A stretch of DNA of 11,139 nt from Planctomycetota bacterium (GTDB lineage: Bacteria; Planctomycetota; MHYJ01; JACPRB01). A program made the position numbers and the translations under genes. The notes beneath the pieces were generated by a model. It was not told where the DNA came from. It saw only the letters and a program-made list of their open reading frames with translations, and ran no database searches. The stretch's first letter is position 1. Every line of letters starts with the position of its first letter. Shown piece after piece: positions 1 to 11,139 of this stretch. Where the stretch lies: positions 1-11,139 of the forward strand of contig JACQFK010000443.1 of NCBI GenBank assembly GCA_016200125.1, given 5' to 3'.

Positions 1-15
1 CAGGGCGACGATCAT
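1..15 (-). CDS. Start of a gene running off the left edge (partial)
   Basis: On the minus strand an ATG at 15-13 overlaps the TGA stop of the preceding gene (14-12) as ATGA and opens a frame reading M-I-V-A-L to the window edge. A good Shine-Dalgarno, GGGAGG, lies about 8 bases upstream inside the end of the previous gene. ATGA overlaps are typical of translationally coupled operon genes, and another overlap of this kind occurs at 4848 in this window. Only five codons are visible, so no function can be given; the hydrophobic start would suit a signal peptide. The overlap and the ribosome-binding site are seen; that a real gene follows is inference. Confidence 0.5.
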
Positions 16-1562
16 TTCAGCGCCTCCCATTTCACTCCGCCCTTGCAGCGCAGGTAGGTCCCCAGGTTGATCAGCCGGTAGCGGTCGCGGAATCCGACAT
101 TGAGGTACTCCCAGGGCAGCCGCTTCGCGAGTTCCTTCTCTTCCCCGGCGAGCGACCACGCGAGCGTCTGGTACATCGAGAAGGAGAGATCGGGGGAGGC
201 GATCGTTTCGTCGCCCCGCTCGATGATCGTCTCGAAGTCCGACCAGTGCCACCACGGCATGTTGGCCTGGAAGGCGTCGAAGATCTCCTGCGTCCGCGGG
301 CGGAGCGTGTCGCCCAGGAAGCGGCCGATCTCGGGGGTCATCGGGTAGTGGAGGACCATGGACTTCAGGTTGGCGCCGCTCGGCGTCATCCCGATCCGGT
401 AGGTCTTGCCGTCGCGGGGCTCGACGACGACGCGCAGATCGTTCGAGCCGTCGGGAAGGAAGCGCATCTCCTTCGGCCAGATCGTCGTCTGCGGCGCGTC
501 GTAGGGCCAGTTGTCGACGGGATAGCGATCCTTGGCGGGAAGCGTGTCGATGGGATTCCCCCGGGGCTTCCGGGAGGGGACCTCGGTGAGCTTGTTCTCG
601 TACAGGTAGGGCCGGACGTAGACGCCGTAGGCGTAGCGCGTGATCAGCAGCCGCGCGGCGGTCCCCGCCGCGAGCGCCTCGGTCGCCCTGTCCTTGAGCT
701 GGCGGGCGAGGCGGGCGACGGCGATGGCCGCGGCGATCTGCGCGTGGAGGTCGCTGACGGCGAGGCCGCGGGCGACATGGAGCCGCCCTTTCGGGTTGCA
801 GCCGTAGTTCCAGTCGATCGTGCCATAGGCGGCGAACTGCCGTTTGCAGGACTCCCAGAGTTGTTCCGCAGGGGAATAGCCTCCGCTGAAGCGCGAGTAG
901 TCCTCCAGGGCCGCGAGGGCCTGCCCCGTCGTGGCCGTGTTGTTCACCCACTCGACGATGCCGGACTTGCCCTGGCGCTCGAACGCGAGATCCTGGTCGT
1001 TGATGAGATGGACGACGACCTCGCGGGAGAGAAACTCCAGGGTCTTTTGCTGAAGCAGCTTCGGCAGATAGGGGAGCGCCTGGGCCAGCGCGCTGACCGA
1101 CTCGCCCTCGAACCAGAAGACCAGGCCGCTGGTGAACCCGTACTCGCGCGGGACGGGTCTCGGGTGGCCGTCCGCGACGAACTCGAACACGCGCCGGGCG
1201 ATCTCGCTCACGATCGCCGCGTCCGCCGCGGCGGCGGGGGGCGACGCGGGCGCCTCGAAAACGTACTTCGCGAGCGGCGCGCGGATGCGGAAGGGCCCCT
1301 CGCCCTCCGCGGTCATCGTCGGCCCGTGAAGCGTGGGCTTGCCCGCGTCGCTGAGGGCGAGCTCTTTGCCTGTCTCATCCTCGACGCGGAGCTTGAGGCC
1401 GTACTTCAGGGCGAGGGCGACGGTCGGAGGAATCTGCCGGACTCCGTCTCCCGCCGGCTTCTCGTGGATGAGGATGTCCGCTCCGTCGAGGGAGTACGAT
1501 TCCTGCGGCGCGGCCCTCGGAGCCAGAAGGAGCAAGGCCGCGGCGACACCGACTCGGATCAT
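12..1562 (-). CDS. Secreted protein of unknown function, about 516 residues
   Basis: The ATG at 1562 gives a short basic start and a hydrophobic stretch (VGVAAALLLLAP) followed by A-A-P-Q-E-S-Y-S, a Sec signal peptide, so the protein is exported. The frame is open for another 287 codons upstream, but that part is a shadow of the next gene. I do not recognise the family. The middle third (about residues 150-310) is helical and rich in Ala and Leu with aromatic pieces such as DWNYGCNPKGRLH, resembling the alpha/alpha-toroid folds of some glycan-active or terpenoid-cyclase-type proteins. The C-terminal third has tryptophan and tyrosine clusters (MPWWHWSDFE). It lies 29 bases downstream of a DUF1080 gene on the same strand, so the two are probably co-transcribed, which weakly suggests saccharide or glycoside metabolism. 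No clear Shine-Dalgarno precedes the ATG. It ends in TGA and overlaps the next gene. Confidence 0.85.
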   Translation of the reverse strand: MIRVGVAAALLLLAPRAAPQESYSLDGADILIHEKPAGDGVRQIPPTVALALKYGLKLRVEDETGKELALSDAGKPTLHGPTMTAEGEGPFRIRAPLAKYVFEAPASPPAAAADAAIVSEIARRVFEFVADGHPRPVPREYGFTSGLVFWFEGESVSALAQALPYLPKLLQQKTLEFLSREVVVHLINDQDLAFERQGKSGIVEWVNNTATTGQALAALEDYSRFSGGYSPAEQLWESCKRQFAAYGTIDWNYGCNPKGRLHVARGLAVSDLHAQIAAAIAVARLARQLKDRATEALAAGTAARLLITRYAYGVYVRPYLYENKLTEVPSRKPRGNPIDTLPAKDRYPVDNWPYDAPQTTIWPKEMRFLPDGSNDLRVVVEPRDGKTYRIGMTPSGANLKSMVLHYPMTPEIGRFLGDTLRPRTQEIFDAFQANMPWWHWSDFETIIERGDETIASPDLSFSMYQTLAWSLAGEEKELAKRLPWEYLNVGFRDRYRLINLGTYLRCKGGVKWEALK

Positions 1563-1591
1563 GCCACTAGTACGCTTGGGGGAGATGAGGT

Positions 1592-2158
1592 TTAGGGCAG
1601 GATCTTGAGCCGGATGTCCTTGTACTGGATCCGCATGGGCTCGGGGATGATCGGCATCGCGAGCACGCCTTCGGCGGCGGCCTTGCCGCGTTCCCGGTCG
1701 TCGAGTTCGCACATCTTCCGCCCGTTGATCTCCAGCACGATGTGCGAACCCTCGGCGAGGACGCGATAGTCCGTCCAGTCCTTGATGTCGATCCCGTGGA
1801 CCAGGTCGTCGGCGTCGGCGAACTTGATGATCTTGCGCTTGCCGGTCTCGTCGATGGTCACGCTCTCGCCGCGCGCCGCGAGCGACTTGCGCGGCCCGTA
1901 CTCGTCCCAGATCCCCCCGAGGTAGGGGCCGCTGAGCGCGATGTCGGCCTGGTAGCCCCACACGAGGCCGCGGTCCTTCACCGCGCTGCGGAACTGCATG
2001 CCGGAGTTGGCCTTGGGGCCGAGGACGCGGAACTTGAAGCGCAGGTCGAAGTTGCGGACCGTGCCGCCCTGCCAGACGATGAACTGGTTCTCCTTCGGCA
2101 GGTGCTTGGGGGTGGCCTCGCCGGTGATGGCGTCGTCCTGGACCGAGAAGAAGCTCAT
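1592..2158 (-). CDS. DUF1080 / 3-keto-disaccharide hydrolase domain protein, true N-terminus uncertain
   Basis: The protein has the hallmarks of the DUF1080 (3-keto-disaccharide hydrolase, concanavalin-like sandwich) family: a segment reading FDLRFKFRV, then NSGMQFRSA, then GYQADI, and a C-terminal QYKDIRLKILP strand. Members act on 3-keto-glycosides or bind glycans in the periplasm. The first canonical start in frame is ATG 2158 (188 residues). However, the same frame continues upstream without a stop and encodes the family's normal opening, FKSIFDGKTLEGWKAPD, preceded by a signal-peptide-like end (FIASADAGG). No ATG, GTG or TTG exists for that extended form; an ATT lies at 2242-2240. The real start is therefore either a non-standard codon or was lost by mutation, rearrangement or assembly error. 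The upstream coding overlaps the start of the divergent paralog at 2248. The gene ends in TAA and is followed by the secreted protein above. Confidence 0.85.
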   Translation of the reverse strand: MSFFSVQDDAITGEATPKHLPKENQFIVWQGGTVRNFDLRFKFRVLGPKANSGMQFRSAVKDRGLVWGYQADIALSGPYLGGIWDEYGPRKSLAARGESVTIDETGKRKIIKFADADDLVHGIDIKDWTDYRVLAEGSHIVLEINGRKMCELDDRERGKAAAEGVLAMPIIPEPMRIQYKDIRLKILP

Positions 2159-2247: not shown

Positions 2248-2853
2248 ATGCGCATGATGCTGGGACTGCTGCTGCTGTCCTTCGCGCCGCAGGCGACGCC
2301 CCTCTTCGACGGGAAGAGCCTCGACGGCTGGGAGGGCGAAAAGGAGAAGGTCTGGCGGGTCGTCGACGGCGCGATCGTCGGCGGGTCGATGCAGGGGAAC
2401 CCGAAGAACGAGTTCCTCACCACGACGAAGCCCTACGCGAACTTCGTCCTCAAGCTCGAGTACAAGCTCGTCGGCACGGAGGGCTTCGTCAACGGCGGCG
2501 TCCAGATCCGCAGCCGCCGGATCCCGAAGCCGCCCAACGAGATGAAGGGCTACCAGGCGGACATCGGCGCCGGCATGTCGGGCTCGCTCTACGACGAGTC
2601 GCGGCGCAACAAGGTGCTCGCCAAGGCCGACCCAGAGCTGATCAAGAAGACGGAGAAGCCGGGCGAGTGGAACACCTACGAGGTCCGCTGCGAGGGGCTG
2701 CGGGTCCGGATCACGCTCAACGGCGTCCAGACCGTGGACTACACCGAGGAGGACAAGGAGCTCGAACAGGACGGGCTGATCGGCCTCCAGATCCACGGCA
2801 ACTGCAAGGCGGAGATCTCGTTCCGGAACCTCACGATCGAAACGCTGAAATAG
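2248..2853 (+). CDS. Exported DUF1080 / 3-keto-disaccharide hydrolase domain protein
   Basis: This 201-residue protein begins with a signal peptide (hydrophobic LGLLLLSFAP) and runs straight into the family's characteristic opening LFDGKSLDGW at residues 19-28. Later come FVLKLEYKLV, a GGVQIRSRR segment, GYQADIG, and the closing LIGLQIHGNCKAEISFRNL strand. The length is that of a single-domain DUF1080 protein. The family hydrolyses 3-keto-glycosides or acts as a glycan-binding sandwich domain outside the cytoplasm; the substrate cannot be read from the sequence. It faces the paralog at 1592-2158 head to head, and the two differ enough to be an old duplication rather than a recent copy. It heads a plus-strand cluster, with the peptidase gene starting nine bases after its TAG. 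The start is supported by GGAGG upstream. Confidence 0.93.
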   Translation: MRMMLGLLLLSFAPQATPLFDGKSLDGWEGEKEKVWRVVDGAIVGGSMQGNPKNEFLTTTKPYANFVLKLEYKLVGTEGFVNGGVQIRSRRIPKPPNEMKGYQADIGAGMSGSLYDESRRNKVLAKADPELIKKTEKPGEWNTYEVRCEGLRVRITLNGVQTVDYTEEDKELEQDGLIGLQIHGNCKAEISFRNLTIETLK

Positions 2854-8469: not shown

Positions 8470-9750
8470 TCAGGGGAGGGTCAGGGCGAGCCGCTCTTCC
8501 TTTTCGCCGCGGAGAACGACCAGCTCCAGCTTCTCCCCGGACAGGGTGTTCTGGGCCACGAACGCGAGCAGCTGGCTGAACGTGTCGATGCCCTTGCGCC
8601 GGCCGGCGACCGCGACGATGACGTCGCCGACGCGGAATCCGGCATCCTCGAGCACCGTGCCCAGGCGGCGGACCCGGAGCGCGACGGCTCCTTCCGCGAG
8701 CTTCAGCTTCTTCCGATCTTCCCCGGAGAGCGGATCGGCCTGGAGGTCCGGCCGGAAGAACACCCAGGTTCCCTGGCGCCACGAGAGATCGCCGCTGCGG
8801 CGCCAGCCCGCAGGAAGAATGAGCGAGAGGGACTCGACGCGCCGGCCGCGCTTCACCTTCGCGGCGAGCGTCGCCCCGTCTTTCGCTCCCTGGAGCACCC
8901 ACTGGACGTCCGCCACGGAGACGAGCTGTTGGCCTTCGAGCGAGACGACTTCGTCGCCGGCGCGGAACCCCGCGAGGTCGGCGGCCGAGCCGGGCGTGAC
9001 CGACTGAACCGTCGCCCGCTCCTCGGGGTCGAGCCGGAGGCCGAGCGTGTCCGGCATCGGGTAGGACCAGAGCGTCTCGTCGGGGATGGGCTTGCGGGCC
9101 TGACGGTGGGCGGCGAATTCCGCCCCCTGGATATCATGGCAATGGATGCAGGTGCTGTTGTTCCGCTCGCCCACGGCGGGGTTGACGGCGGCCGCGAAGT
9201 GGCGGAGCGTGGGGTAGTCCTGCGGGACGCGAACCTTGGGCTCCGCGCCCCGCTTGCCCTCCAGGGCGGCCTTATTGTCGGGATATCCGCGATGGATCTC
9301 GAGCGCGGCCAGGGCCGCCTTGCGGAAGCCGGCGTCCGTGACGTCGCTGGAGCTGTTGAGCTGCGACCGGGTCCCGTAGCGCCCGTAGACGGTCTTGTCG
9401 GCGTTCATGAACAGGACCGCCCAGGTGAGCCCGTAGTCGAATTGAAATGCGGCCAGGTCGAGGTTGTTGGCCTGAACGAGGCGCACGCAGACGAACTTCT
9501 CCAGGACGTCCGCGAACTCCTTTCCGCGGCGGGCAACCTGCCCGTCGATGCCCTTGCAGTTTTTTCAGACCACGCAACGGACGACGACCAGGAGCGGCTT
9601 CCCAGTGGCGCGCGCCTCGGCGAATCCCGAAGCCGGGTTGTTGTAGTGCCAGGGCCCTTCGGGATCGAGGTCGTTCAGCGCGGCCTGGAGCGGATCCTCC
9701 TGCGGGCCGGCCGCAAGGAGGATCGCGAGCAGGACGAGCGGGCGGGCCAT
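8470..9750 (-). CDS. Exported thioredoxin-fold / CxxCH / double-PDZ selenoprotein (UGA read as Sec62)
   Basis: Read through one in-frame TGA (codon 62), the gene encodes 426 residues. They comprise a signal peptide (residues 1-16, hydrophobic LVLLAILLAAG), a thioredoxin-like domain (about 25-150), one c-type haem motif C201-I-H-C204-H205, and two PDZ domains (about 234-311 with AGFRAGDEV, and 348-426 with AGFRVGDVI). The TGA follows the strand LLVVV and sits in C59-V-V-U62-K-N-C65, where thioredoxins have CxxC, so selenocysteine would be the attacking redox residue. A hairpin with a GGU loop lies just downstream. Both parts are in the same frame with no other stop, and the second part alone would start at a GTG in mid-fold and lack a signal peptide. 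The role is probably periplasmic thiol or peroxide redox chemistry; the haem site suggests electron transfer, and the PDZ domains probably bind protein tails. It follows a Tat amidohydrolase after nine bases. I recall thioredoxin/PDZ (seleno)proteins as a described type but cannot check this. The alternative is a nonsense pseudogene, which the UxxC position and hairpin argue against. Confidence 0.85.
9527..9547 (-). promoter_or_regulatory. Candidate bacterial SECIS hairpin
   Basis: Within the coding sequence, starting 22 bases after the UGA, GGGCA pairs perfectly with TGCCC around a GGT loop (9543-9531). It is extended by one C-G pair and, past an A/C mismatch, by two more pairs. Bacterial SECIS elements are short hairpins directly downstream of UGA with a G or GU in the apical loop, read by SelB. 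The E. coli fdhF element has a loop region containing AGGUCU, and here the equivalent reads AGGUU. The loop G lies 27-28 bases from the UGA, within the accepted range. Confidence 0.75.
9565..9567 (-). other. In-frame UGA selenocysteine codon
   Basis: The codons around it read CGT TGC GTG GTC TGA AAA AAC TGC AAG (R-C-V-V-U-K-N-C-K). The stop falls at the first position of the thioredoxin-type redox motif. The frame is open for 61 codons before it and 364 after. The gene also ends in TGA, so reading must depend on local context rather than a changed genetic code. Confidence 0.85.
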
Positions 9751-9767
9751 CGGCCTGGGTCAGGCCG
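9751..9767 (-). promoter_or_regulatory. Hairpin abutting the selenoprotein start codon
   Basis: On the minus strand CGGCCTG-ACC-CAGGCCG forms a seven-pair stem with a three-base loop, and the next three bases are the ATG of the selenoprotein gene. The hairpin contains the TGA stop of the upstream amidohydrolase, and no free Shine-Dalgarno is visible. Ribosomes finishing the upstream gene would melt it, so translational coupling is likely. In GC-rich DNA such a stem can also arise by chance. Confidence 0.4.
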
Positions 9768-11130
9768 GCCGGCCGCCCCGCATCGCCAGGAGCTCGAAGA
9801 ACTCGCGGCGCGTCTTCGGACCGTAGACGCGGTGCGAGGGATCGCGGCCCGGCAGGTAGCTCTGCTTGAGCTTTTCGACTTCGTCCTTCTGGATCTTCGG
9901 AAGGTCGCGCTTCGGCTCCACCCCGTAGACCTTCGCGGAGCTCAGCCCCAGGATCTTCGCCTTCAGCTCCTTCGTCAGCTCCGGATAGCCGTGCTTCTCG
10001 CGAAGCTCCTCCGAGATCTGGAACGCGCGGAAGGCGGCGATCTGCGGCTGCGGCGAGCCGTACCAGAGGCAGTCCGTCCCCCAGAGCACGTTGTCGGGCC
10101 CCACCGCCTTGAGCAGCTTGCCCAGCACGTGCGCCGCCTCCTCGGGCTTCTTCATCAGCGTCCACCAGGTGCTCCCGAGCTCCGCGTAGACGTTGCCGCC
10201 CGACTTGATGCCGTTGTCCTCGATCGACTTGATGAAGGCGTTCACGCCCTCGTCCGCCTTTCCGGCGTCGTAGGGGCCTTCCTTGACGCGCGGGATGTAG
10301 CCGGAGTGGTAGACGATGAAGTTCACGTCGGGATACTTCCTGGCGACGATCCCGATGTCGCGCGCGGTGTCGTAGCGCTCAGGCAGCTTCCCGAAGGGGA
10401 AGCCCTTGTGGGTGCAGATCAGCTTGATGCCCAGCTCGCGCGCCTTCTCGATCACCGGAATGCCGACCTTCTCGTCGTGGTGCCAGAAGCCCCTGCCCTC
10501 GGGGCCGAGCAGCGTGTAGAGCTTCCACGCGGCGATCTTGTTCTTCTTGCAGACCTCCTCCATGCCGTCCAGGTGGCGCTTCACGTCGCCGTAATTCGGC
10601 GTGACCAGCGCGTGGACCCAGAGGCGCGGCGACTTGCCGCCGATCGATTCGATGATCTCGCGCGTGAGCTCGGCCTCGGCATGCGAGAGCGGGTTGGCCT
10701 CCTCGGCGGCGGGAAGGGCGCTGAGCACCGCGCAGGTCGTGTCGCTGTCGAGGAAGATCTCCTTGATGTACTCGTAGCGGCCGCCCATGTTCCAGCCCTT
10801 GGTCTTGGCCGGCTGGACGTGGTGCGTCTGGATGTCGAAGATGAACTCGTCGCCCTTCAGCACGGAGTCGGCGGCCGCGGGGTCGATGACCGCCTCGCGC
10901 GGCAGGACGTAGGATCCGCCGGGCGACGCGGAGGCCTGGTTGATCGCGGCGAGGCAGGCGGCCATGCCGCAGGTCGACCGGAGGAAGGCCCGCCGGCTCA
11001 TTCCGGTGCGGCGCAGGCCCTTCTCGACGAGCGCCCAGGCGATGTCCTGCATCGCGGCGACTTTCGGGGTCTTGCGGGGCGGCAGGTACTCGCCGTTCGA
11101 AACGGGGTCGAAGTGCAGCGGCAGGCTCAT
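9760..11130 (-). CDS. Tat-exported amidohydrolase-2 family protein
   Basis: This 456-residue protein begins at ATG 11130 with AGGA about five bases upstream; a GTG at 11133 is an alternative. A hydrophilic N-region of about 43 residues (with HFDPVSNGEYLPPR) precedes a twin-arginine signal SRRAFLRST (Arg46, Arg47) and a hydrophobic stretch ending ASA. An ATG just before the twin arginine (11001) has no Shine-Dalgarno, and I recall the long N-region as typical of this subfamily, so 11130 is kept. The TIM-barrel metal site is marked by DIQTHH (His103, His104), ICTHKG (His241), VYHSG (His275) and WGTDCLW (Asp353), as in the ACMSD/uracil-decarboxylase-like amidohydrolase-2 group. It hydrolyses or decarboxylates an unknown small molecule, folded with its metal before export. 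The selenoprotein gene starts nine bases after its TGA, so the two form an operon. Confidence 0.92.
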   Translation of the reverse strand: MSLPLHFDPVSNGEYLPPRKTPKVAAMQDIAWALVEKGLRRTGMSRRAFLRSTCGMAACLAAINQASASPGGSYVLPREAVIDPAAADSVLKGDEFIFDIQTHHVQPAKTKGWNMGGRYEYIKEIFLDSDTTCAVLSALPAAEEANPLSHAEAELTREIIESIGGKSPRLWVHALVTPNYGDVKRHLDGMEEVCKKNKIAAWKLYTLLGPEGRGFWHHDEKVGIPVIEKARELGIKLICTHKGFPFGKLPERYDTARDIGIVARKYPDVNFIVYHSGYIPRVKEGPYDAGKADEGVNAFIKSIEDNGIKSGGNVYAELGSTWWTLMKKPEEAAHVLGKLLKAVGPDNVLWGTDCLWYGSPQPQIAAFRAFQISEELREKHGYPELTKELKAKILGLSSAKVYGVEPKRDLPKIQKDEVEKLKQSYLPGRDPSHRVYGPKTRREFFELLAMRGGRPA

Positions 11131-11139
11131 CACGTTCCT

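What the first reader, a model, noticed from the sequence alone, without database searches (positions are those of the whole stretch)
8470..9750. Hidden selenoprotein: one gene split in two by an in-frame UGA at a UxxC redox site
Seen: two minus-strand ORFs lie in the same frame, separated only by a TGA, with a signal peptide in the first and no sensible start in the second. The TGA sits at the first position of a thioredoxin-type motif (C-V-V-U-K-N-C). Known: selenocysteine commonly replaces cysteine at exactly this position. Inferred: a 426-residue exported selenoprotein that standard gene calling would truncate to 61 residues or split.
Basis: partly seen in the sequence, partly recalled or inferred. 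Interest (0 to 1): 0.9.

Follow-up and report, generated by a model that had tools for sequence, protein, structure and literature searches.

The report
Planctomycete Trx7/PDZ selenoprotein, known family
A bacterial gene that looks cut in two by a stop signal is almost certainly one gene for an exported selenium-containing redox protein; its family was already known to use selenium, so this is a good new example rather than a new kind of thing.

Summary
Window 9750-8470 (minus) is one 426-residue frame interrupted only by TGA at codon 62 (9567-9565). Read through, it is a member of NCBIfam NF041199, "Trx7/PDZ domain-containing (seleno)protein" (375 bits, cut-off 300), listed in two reviews as CxxU. 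In 151 members read (window included) codon 62 is TGA in 99 and Cys in 52. Sec members carry a SECIS-type hairpin at fixed distance, supported against a synonymous-codon null; Cys members do not show it. selB is in 65 of 75 genomes with TGA members, 13 of 44 with Cys members only. The window's own genome is not held, so its Sec machinery is untested. Of 99 Sec members 66 have a second TGA at 59 (UxxU), a form absent from the review passages seen. All 151 keep CxHCH before the PDZ part. New member of a known kind.

The parts
8470..9750 (-). CDS of Trx7/PDZ selenoprotein, 426 residues if TGA at codon 62 is read as selenocysteine
   Evidence: NF041199 375.2 bits, cut-off 300, residues 34-424; Pfam Thioredoxin_7 39-117, PDZ_2 two stretches, best 236-310
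9565..9567 (-). in-frame TGA, codon 62, predicted Sec
   Evidence: codon 62 is TGA in 99 and TGC/TGT in 52 of 151 members
9574..9576 (-). TGC, codon 59, invariant redox partner (Cys here; TGA in 66 of 151 members)
9556..9558 (-). codon 65, Cys here (Cys in 141 of 151 members)
9527..9547 (-). SECIS-type hairpin: arms 9547-9539 and 9535-9527 (8 of 9 pairs), apical loop GGT at 9538-9536, loop starting 27 nt after the TGA
   Evidence: family support
9400..9636 (-). Thioredoxin_7 domain, residues 39-117
9136..9150 (-). CIHCH, residues 201-205 (CxHCH in 151 of 151 members), possible haem c or metal site
8821..9045 (-). first PDZ domain, residues 236-310
   Evidence: HtrA-family PDZ matches
8473..8760 (-). 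second PDZ-like domain, about residues 331-426

Best explanation
One gene encodes an exported (signal-like N-terminus) thioredoxin-fold plus double-PDZ oxidoreductase whose codon-62 UGA is decoded as selenocysteine. SelB carrying Sec-tRNA(Sec) binds the hairpin whose loop starts 27 nt after the UGA and delivers Sec. U62 sits at the position of the attacking cysteine of thioredoxin-type CxxC and cycles between selenol and a selenyl-sulfide with C59 (invariant) and/or C65. The PDZ domains probably dock a partner or substrate tail; the invariant CxHCH may bind haem c or a metal and exchange electrons with the active site. Shown by comparison: family membership, Cys/TGA exchange, hairpin, association with selB/selA in relatives. 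Inferred: Sec insertion in this organism, export, the redox partner, the PDZ and CxHCH roles.
For: NF041199 equivalog above cut-off. Codon 62 is Cys (52) or TGA (99) in 151 of 151 members read; the rows listed by the read-through search have TGA or no stop inside, no TAA or TAG. Hairpin: mean best energy -8.8 (C-U) and -9.4 (U-U) kcal/mol against -3.1 in Cys members; eight pair positions form 619 of 792 pairs in Sec members, synonymous null mean 430.7, sd 8.3, maximum 457; Cys members 89 of 416, null 100.8; nucleotide +27 is G in 97 of 99 Sec members. selB in 65 of 75 genomes with a TGA member, 13 of 44 with Cys members only, Fisher p 3e-10 (from; 234 of all 392 genomes have it). Of the 10 TGA genomes without selB over cut-off 9 have selA; of 10 Cys-only genomes without selB, 0.
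Against: The window's genome is not held, so its Sec machinery is untested. No Rfam SECIS match. The window's hairpin alone is borderline: 5% of synonymous shuffles do as well, and a 58-nt fold has z -0.11; 42 to 45% of Sec members singly do not reach 0.05. One TGA genome (G213) has neither selB, selA nor tRNA-Sec at the thresholds used. 13 of 44 Cys-only genomes have selB too. The function of the family is untested.
Confidence: 0.94

Rival explanations
1. Pseudogene or sequencing error: a Cys codon (TGC/TGT) changed to TGA by mutation or misread.
For: One base separates TGA from TGC/TGT; 52 of 151 members have Cys at this site.
Against: TGA stands at the same codon in 98 other sequences; the frame of the window runs on for 364 codons to its stop, in the range of 149 of 151 members (347-398; the others 261 and 456); the positioned hairpin with synonymous-site support is seen in TGA members as a group and not in Cys members.
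Confidence: 0.03
2. Genome-wide reassignment of TGA to a sense codon.
For: TGA is read through here.
Against: The same gene ends with TGA at 8472-8470 and the gene just upstream with TGA at 9762-9760; the site is Cys in homologues, not Trp or Gly.
Confidence: 0.01
3. Two separate proteins: a 61-residue exported peptide and an internally started double-PDZ protein, the TGA being a true stop.
For: Gene callers list such downstream fragments: 41 of 119 listed homologues are under 400 aa.
Against: The TGA lies between strand 53-58 and helix 63-73 of one thioredoxin fold; by my reading the downstream part has no signal sequence; the Cys members are one continuous frame.
Confidence: 0.02

Closest known systems
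NCBIfam NF041199 trx7_PDZ_seleno
   Same: Whole-length match over the equivalog cut-off; CxxU with one Sec, as listed in PMC13188914 (passages seen) and, as PDZ domain-containing protein pfam13899 CxxU, in PMC9312934 (passages seen).
   Different: None in kind; 54% identity to the nearest member read, L001, which has two TGA codons, UxxU.
'Putative secreted serine protease MucD' selenoprotein of the Global Ocean Sampling paper, PMC2398784 (passages seen)
   Same: CxxU motif; probably the first report of this family (my inference: the 2026 review gives reference 61 for it and for other families new in that paper; the reference list was not read).
   Different: That paper reports 2 Sec and 12 Cys sequences; no protease domain is reported in the window's protein by Pfam.
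TXNDC12/p19 thioredoxin fold (2k8v, 1sen)
   Same: U62 and C65 align with the two cysteines of its CGAC.
   Different: No equivalent of C59: a Lys aligns there.
HtrA/DegP/DegQ PDZ domains
   Same: PDZ domains.
   Different: Thioredoxin domain in place of the protease; Foldseek TM-scores over the whole model are low, 0.16-0.27 in the rows listed.

Membership tests
NF041199 Trx7/PDZ (seleno)protein | score above the curated cut-off of 300 bits | tested here: met
   375.2 bits, profile 2-389 of 390
NF041199 Trx7/PDZ (seleno)protein | Thioredoxin_7 domain followed by PDZ | tested here: met
NF041199 Trx7/PDZ (seleno)protein | CxxU or CxxC at the active site (motif as in PMC13188914) | tested here: met
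   C59-V-V-U62; 151 of 151 members read have C or U at both
bacterial selenoprotein | Cys at the Sec site in homologues | tested here: met
   52 of 151
bacterial selenoprotein | hairpin directly downstream of UGA with G at the start of the apical loop (rule recalled) | tested here: met
   window 9547-9527, loop GGT; alone borderline, family-level support
bacterial selenoprotein | selA, selB, selC, selD in the same genome | not testable with these tools
   no genome held; the genomes G001 and G002 of L001 and L002 have selB and tRNA-Sec above cut-off
bacterial selenoprotein | selenium in the product | not testable with these tools
   needs labelling or mass spectrometry
c-type cytochrome | CxxCH haem attachment motif (recalled) in a cytochrome domain | tested here: inconclusive
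   motif in 151 of 151 members; no cytochrome domain in Pfam at E 0.1; no axial ligand identified, residue 232 (Met in the window) varies
HtrA serine protease | protease domain and full-length score | tested here: not met
   no protease domain; degP_htrA_DO 51.1 bits against cut-off 416.2, PDZ part only

The most novel reading that the evidence does not exclude
In this family a single downstream SECIS serves two UGAs 9 nt apart, so that once Sec is fixed at residue 62 the neighbouring residue 59 can flip between Cys and Sec by one base. This would explain why U59 occurs only with U62 (66 of 66, never U59-C62), why site 59 needs at least 20 state changes on the tree but site 62 only 4, and why the double-Sec UxxU form is the commonest Sec form here. 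The window, C59 with a double-Sec sister (L001), would be one such flip. Together with the invariant CxHCH the protein would be an exported selenol-to-haem (or metal) electron relay.
Probability: 0.4. Interest if true: 0.55.

Novelty: new member of a known kind. Interest (0 to 1): 0.38.

Why it matters
It adds a well-supported case of a gene that mechanical ORF calling splits, and shows how widespread this selenoprotein family is in the phylum sampled (109 of 392 genomes over cut-off). The double-Sec form and the pattern C-C, C-U, U-U without U-C offer a natural series for asking how one SECIS decodes two UGAs and what Sec adds over Cys at each position.

Tried and rejected
Own-genome searches failed, as no genome is held. 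Rfam gave no SECIS (the two matches are far below their gathering scores). Folding 58 nt around the TGA was no better than shuffles; the family comparison was the informative test. A plasmid search found nothing. A search of the order of G001 could examine only 5 genomes and gave nothing closer than L001's own gene. Foldseek and VIA-align matches are filled mainly by PDZ domains, so residues about 158-230 with CxHCH were barely tested by fold. I first thought the UxxC register mistaken because 59 and 62 are the invariant pair; alignment to 2k8v, 1sen, 3fk8 and 1mek put U62 on the first Cys of CxxC (the last two at E 0.26 and 0.68), so both registers are kept. Neighbouring ORFs of L001 look unlike those of the window (my reading of translations, not a search), so the upstream neighbour was not used as evidence. 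Searches for print; I saw passages of three papers (PMC13188914, PMC9312934, PMC2398784) and only listings of the rest. No passage seen gives a UxxU form of this family, but only open-licence papers are held.

Limits of the counts. The 151 members are the 155 rows less 4 duplicate rows from overlapping loci, and include the window; they come from matches listed (E <= 1e-60) and the loci; unlisted matches and L168 are not in. One search scored at most 4 candidates per genome and at most 3, so copy numbers are lower bounds. The script cut frames at TAA/TAG, so the absence of these stops rests. Of 122 genomes with a match, 119 enter the selB table; G007, G120 and G181 had matches that were not printed. 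One search printed the over-cut-off mark only down to E 4.8e-94; I took weaker best matches (down to 4.4e-80) as over cut-off from the relation of E to bits, and 1e-50 to 1e-60 as not over. Four of the 10 TGA genomes counted as without selB have such a weaker match. Completeness of assemblies was not given. The 10 Cys-only controls were the first ten in listing order; none has selB. The random-draw figure ignores relatedness. The tree is a quick one without mixture model, with one flagged join of long branches (L137, L060); starred branches alone force at least 14 changes of the U-U label.

Full report
Observation. Minus strand 9750-8470 is one frame with a single internal stop, TGA at 9567-9565. 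Translation through it gives 426 residues: a hydrophobic N-terminus (my reading), a thioredoxin-like domain with C59-V-V-U62-K-N-C65, CIHCH at 201-205, and two PDZ domains.

Family. The protein scores 375.2 bits against NCBIfam NF041199, trx7_PDZ_seleno (cut-off 300), along nearly the whole profile. The family is in print: a 2026 review lists Trx7/PDZ domain-containing protein, NF041199, CxxU, 1 (PMC13188914, passages) and a 2022 review PDZ domain-containing protein, pfam13899, CxxU (PMC9312934, passages). The probable first report is the Global Ocean Sampling paper's putative secreted serine protease MucD with CxxU, 2 Sec and 12 Cys sequences (PMC2398784, passages); that this is the same family is my inference from the shared reference number in the 2026 review.

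Cys/Sec exchange. In 392 genomes drawn from the phylum of G001 (a Planctomycetota MAG by the record title of L001), 122 have a match at E <= 1e-60 and 109 a match over the cut-off; the rows listed have TGA or no stop inside. I read the site in 151 members, window included. Site 62: TGA 99, TGC/TGT 52. Site 59: TGA 66, TGC/TGT 85. Combinations: C-C 52, C-U 33, U-U 66, U-C 0. If drawn at random, the chance that all 66 U59 fall among the U62 is 4e-18, relatedness ignored. On a quick tree built without residues 59-62, site 62 needs 4 changes and site 59 needs 20; starred branches alone force 14 changes of the U-U label and 4 of the C-C label. The window's sister is L001, U-U, at 54% identity. Site 65 is Cys in 141 of 151. 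In one search the database homologues long enough to cover the site have Cys at 59 and 62.

Hairpin. After codon 62, the best hairpin of Sec members has its loop starting at +26 or +27 in 91 of 99; in Cys members the loop starts are scattered, at +26 in 1 and +27 in 0 of 52, with no qualifying hairpin in 10. Mean energies are -8.8 (C-U) and -9.4 (U-U) against -3.1 kcal/mol (C-C). Singly, 55% of C-U and 58% of U-U members reach 0.05 against their own synonymous shuffles, 10% of C-C members do; a plain 45-nt fold separates them less (24%, 33% and 4%). On the register +19..+26 with +30..+37, Sec members form 619 of 792 pairs; 200 synonymous re-drawings that keep each protein and draw from its own codons reach 457 at most (mean 430.7, sd 8.3). 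Cells changed on both sides: 56, against a null of 29.7 (maximum 41). Cys members: 89 of 416, null 100.8. Sliding the 3' arm by 1 to 3 bases gives 194 to 441 of 792. Nucleotide +27 is G in 97 of 99 Sec members. In the window the arms are 9547-9539 and 9535-9527, 8 of 9 paired, loop GGT; alone it is borderline (5% of synonymous shuffles as good), and a 58-nt fold is no better than shuffles.

Machinery. selB is over cut-off in 65 of 75 genomes with a TGA member and 13 of 44 with Cys members only; over all 392 genomes it is 234. Of the 10 TGA genomes without it, 9 have selA over cut-off and 9 a tRNA-Sec match at E <= 1e-7, 8 of them over the gathering score. Ten Cys-only genomes without selB have selA in 0 of 10, and tRNA-Sec matches in 4, 2 of them over the gathering score, so the tRNA test is less specific. 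G213 lacks all three at these thresholds. G001 and G002 have selB and tRNA-Sec over cut-off. The window's own genome cannot be examined.

Register of the motif. By conservation, however, 59 and 62 are Cys or Sec in all 151 while 65 is not, which is the CxxU of the reviews. I take U62 as the attacking residue and C59 as the essential partner, with C65 as an additional one; this step is inference.

Verdict. A sound selenoprotein prediction, a new member of a known family. What the review passages seen do not list is that the double-Sec UxxU form is the commonest Sec form in this sample, and that site 59 exchanges Cys and Sec more often than site 62.

Noticed in passing
family loci, e.g. L094, L124, L145: Double-TGA (UxxU) members are 66 of 99 Sec members; the one hairpin's loop mostly starts 26-27 nt after the second TGA, that is 35-36 nt after the first; no member read has U59 with C62.
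   Followed up: partly
window 9136-9150 (-): CxHCH invariant in 151 of 151 members between the thioredoxin and PDZ parts, not named in the family's title.
   Followed up: partly
G001 (loci L004, L005, L007, L009, L168): One MAG carries five copies of the family with two TGA each, four over the cut-off, two of them adjacent.
   Followed up: no
L150 (G083): A match with three TGAs inside; the first stop after residue 62 comes at 261 codons: broken or frame-shifted gene, or another site.
   Followed up: no
window 9760-11133 (-): Amidohydrolase (PF04909) ends 9 bases before the selenoprotein's ATG on the same strand; possible operon.
   Followed up: no
window 1592-2158 (-) and 2248-2853 (+): Two divergent 3-keto-disaccharide hydrolase domain proteins (PF06439).
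   Followed up: no
window 12-1565 (-): Long open frame without Pfam match at 1e-5.
   Followed up: no
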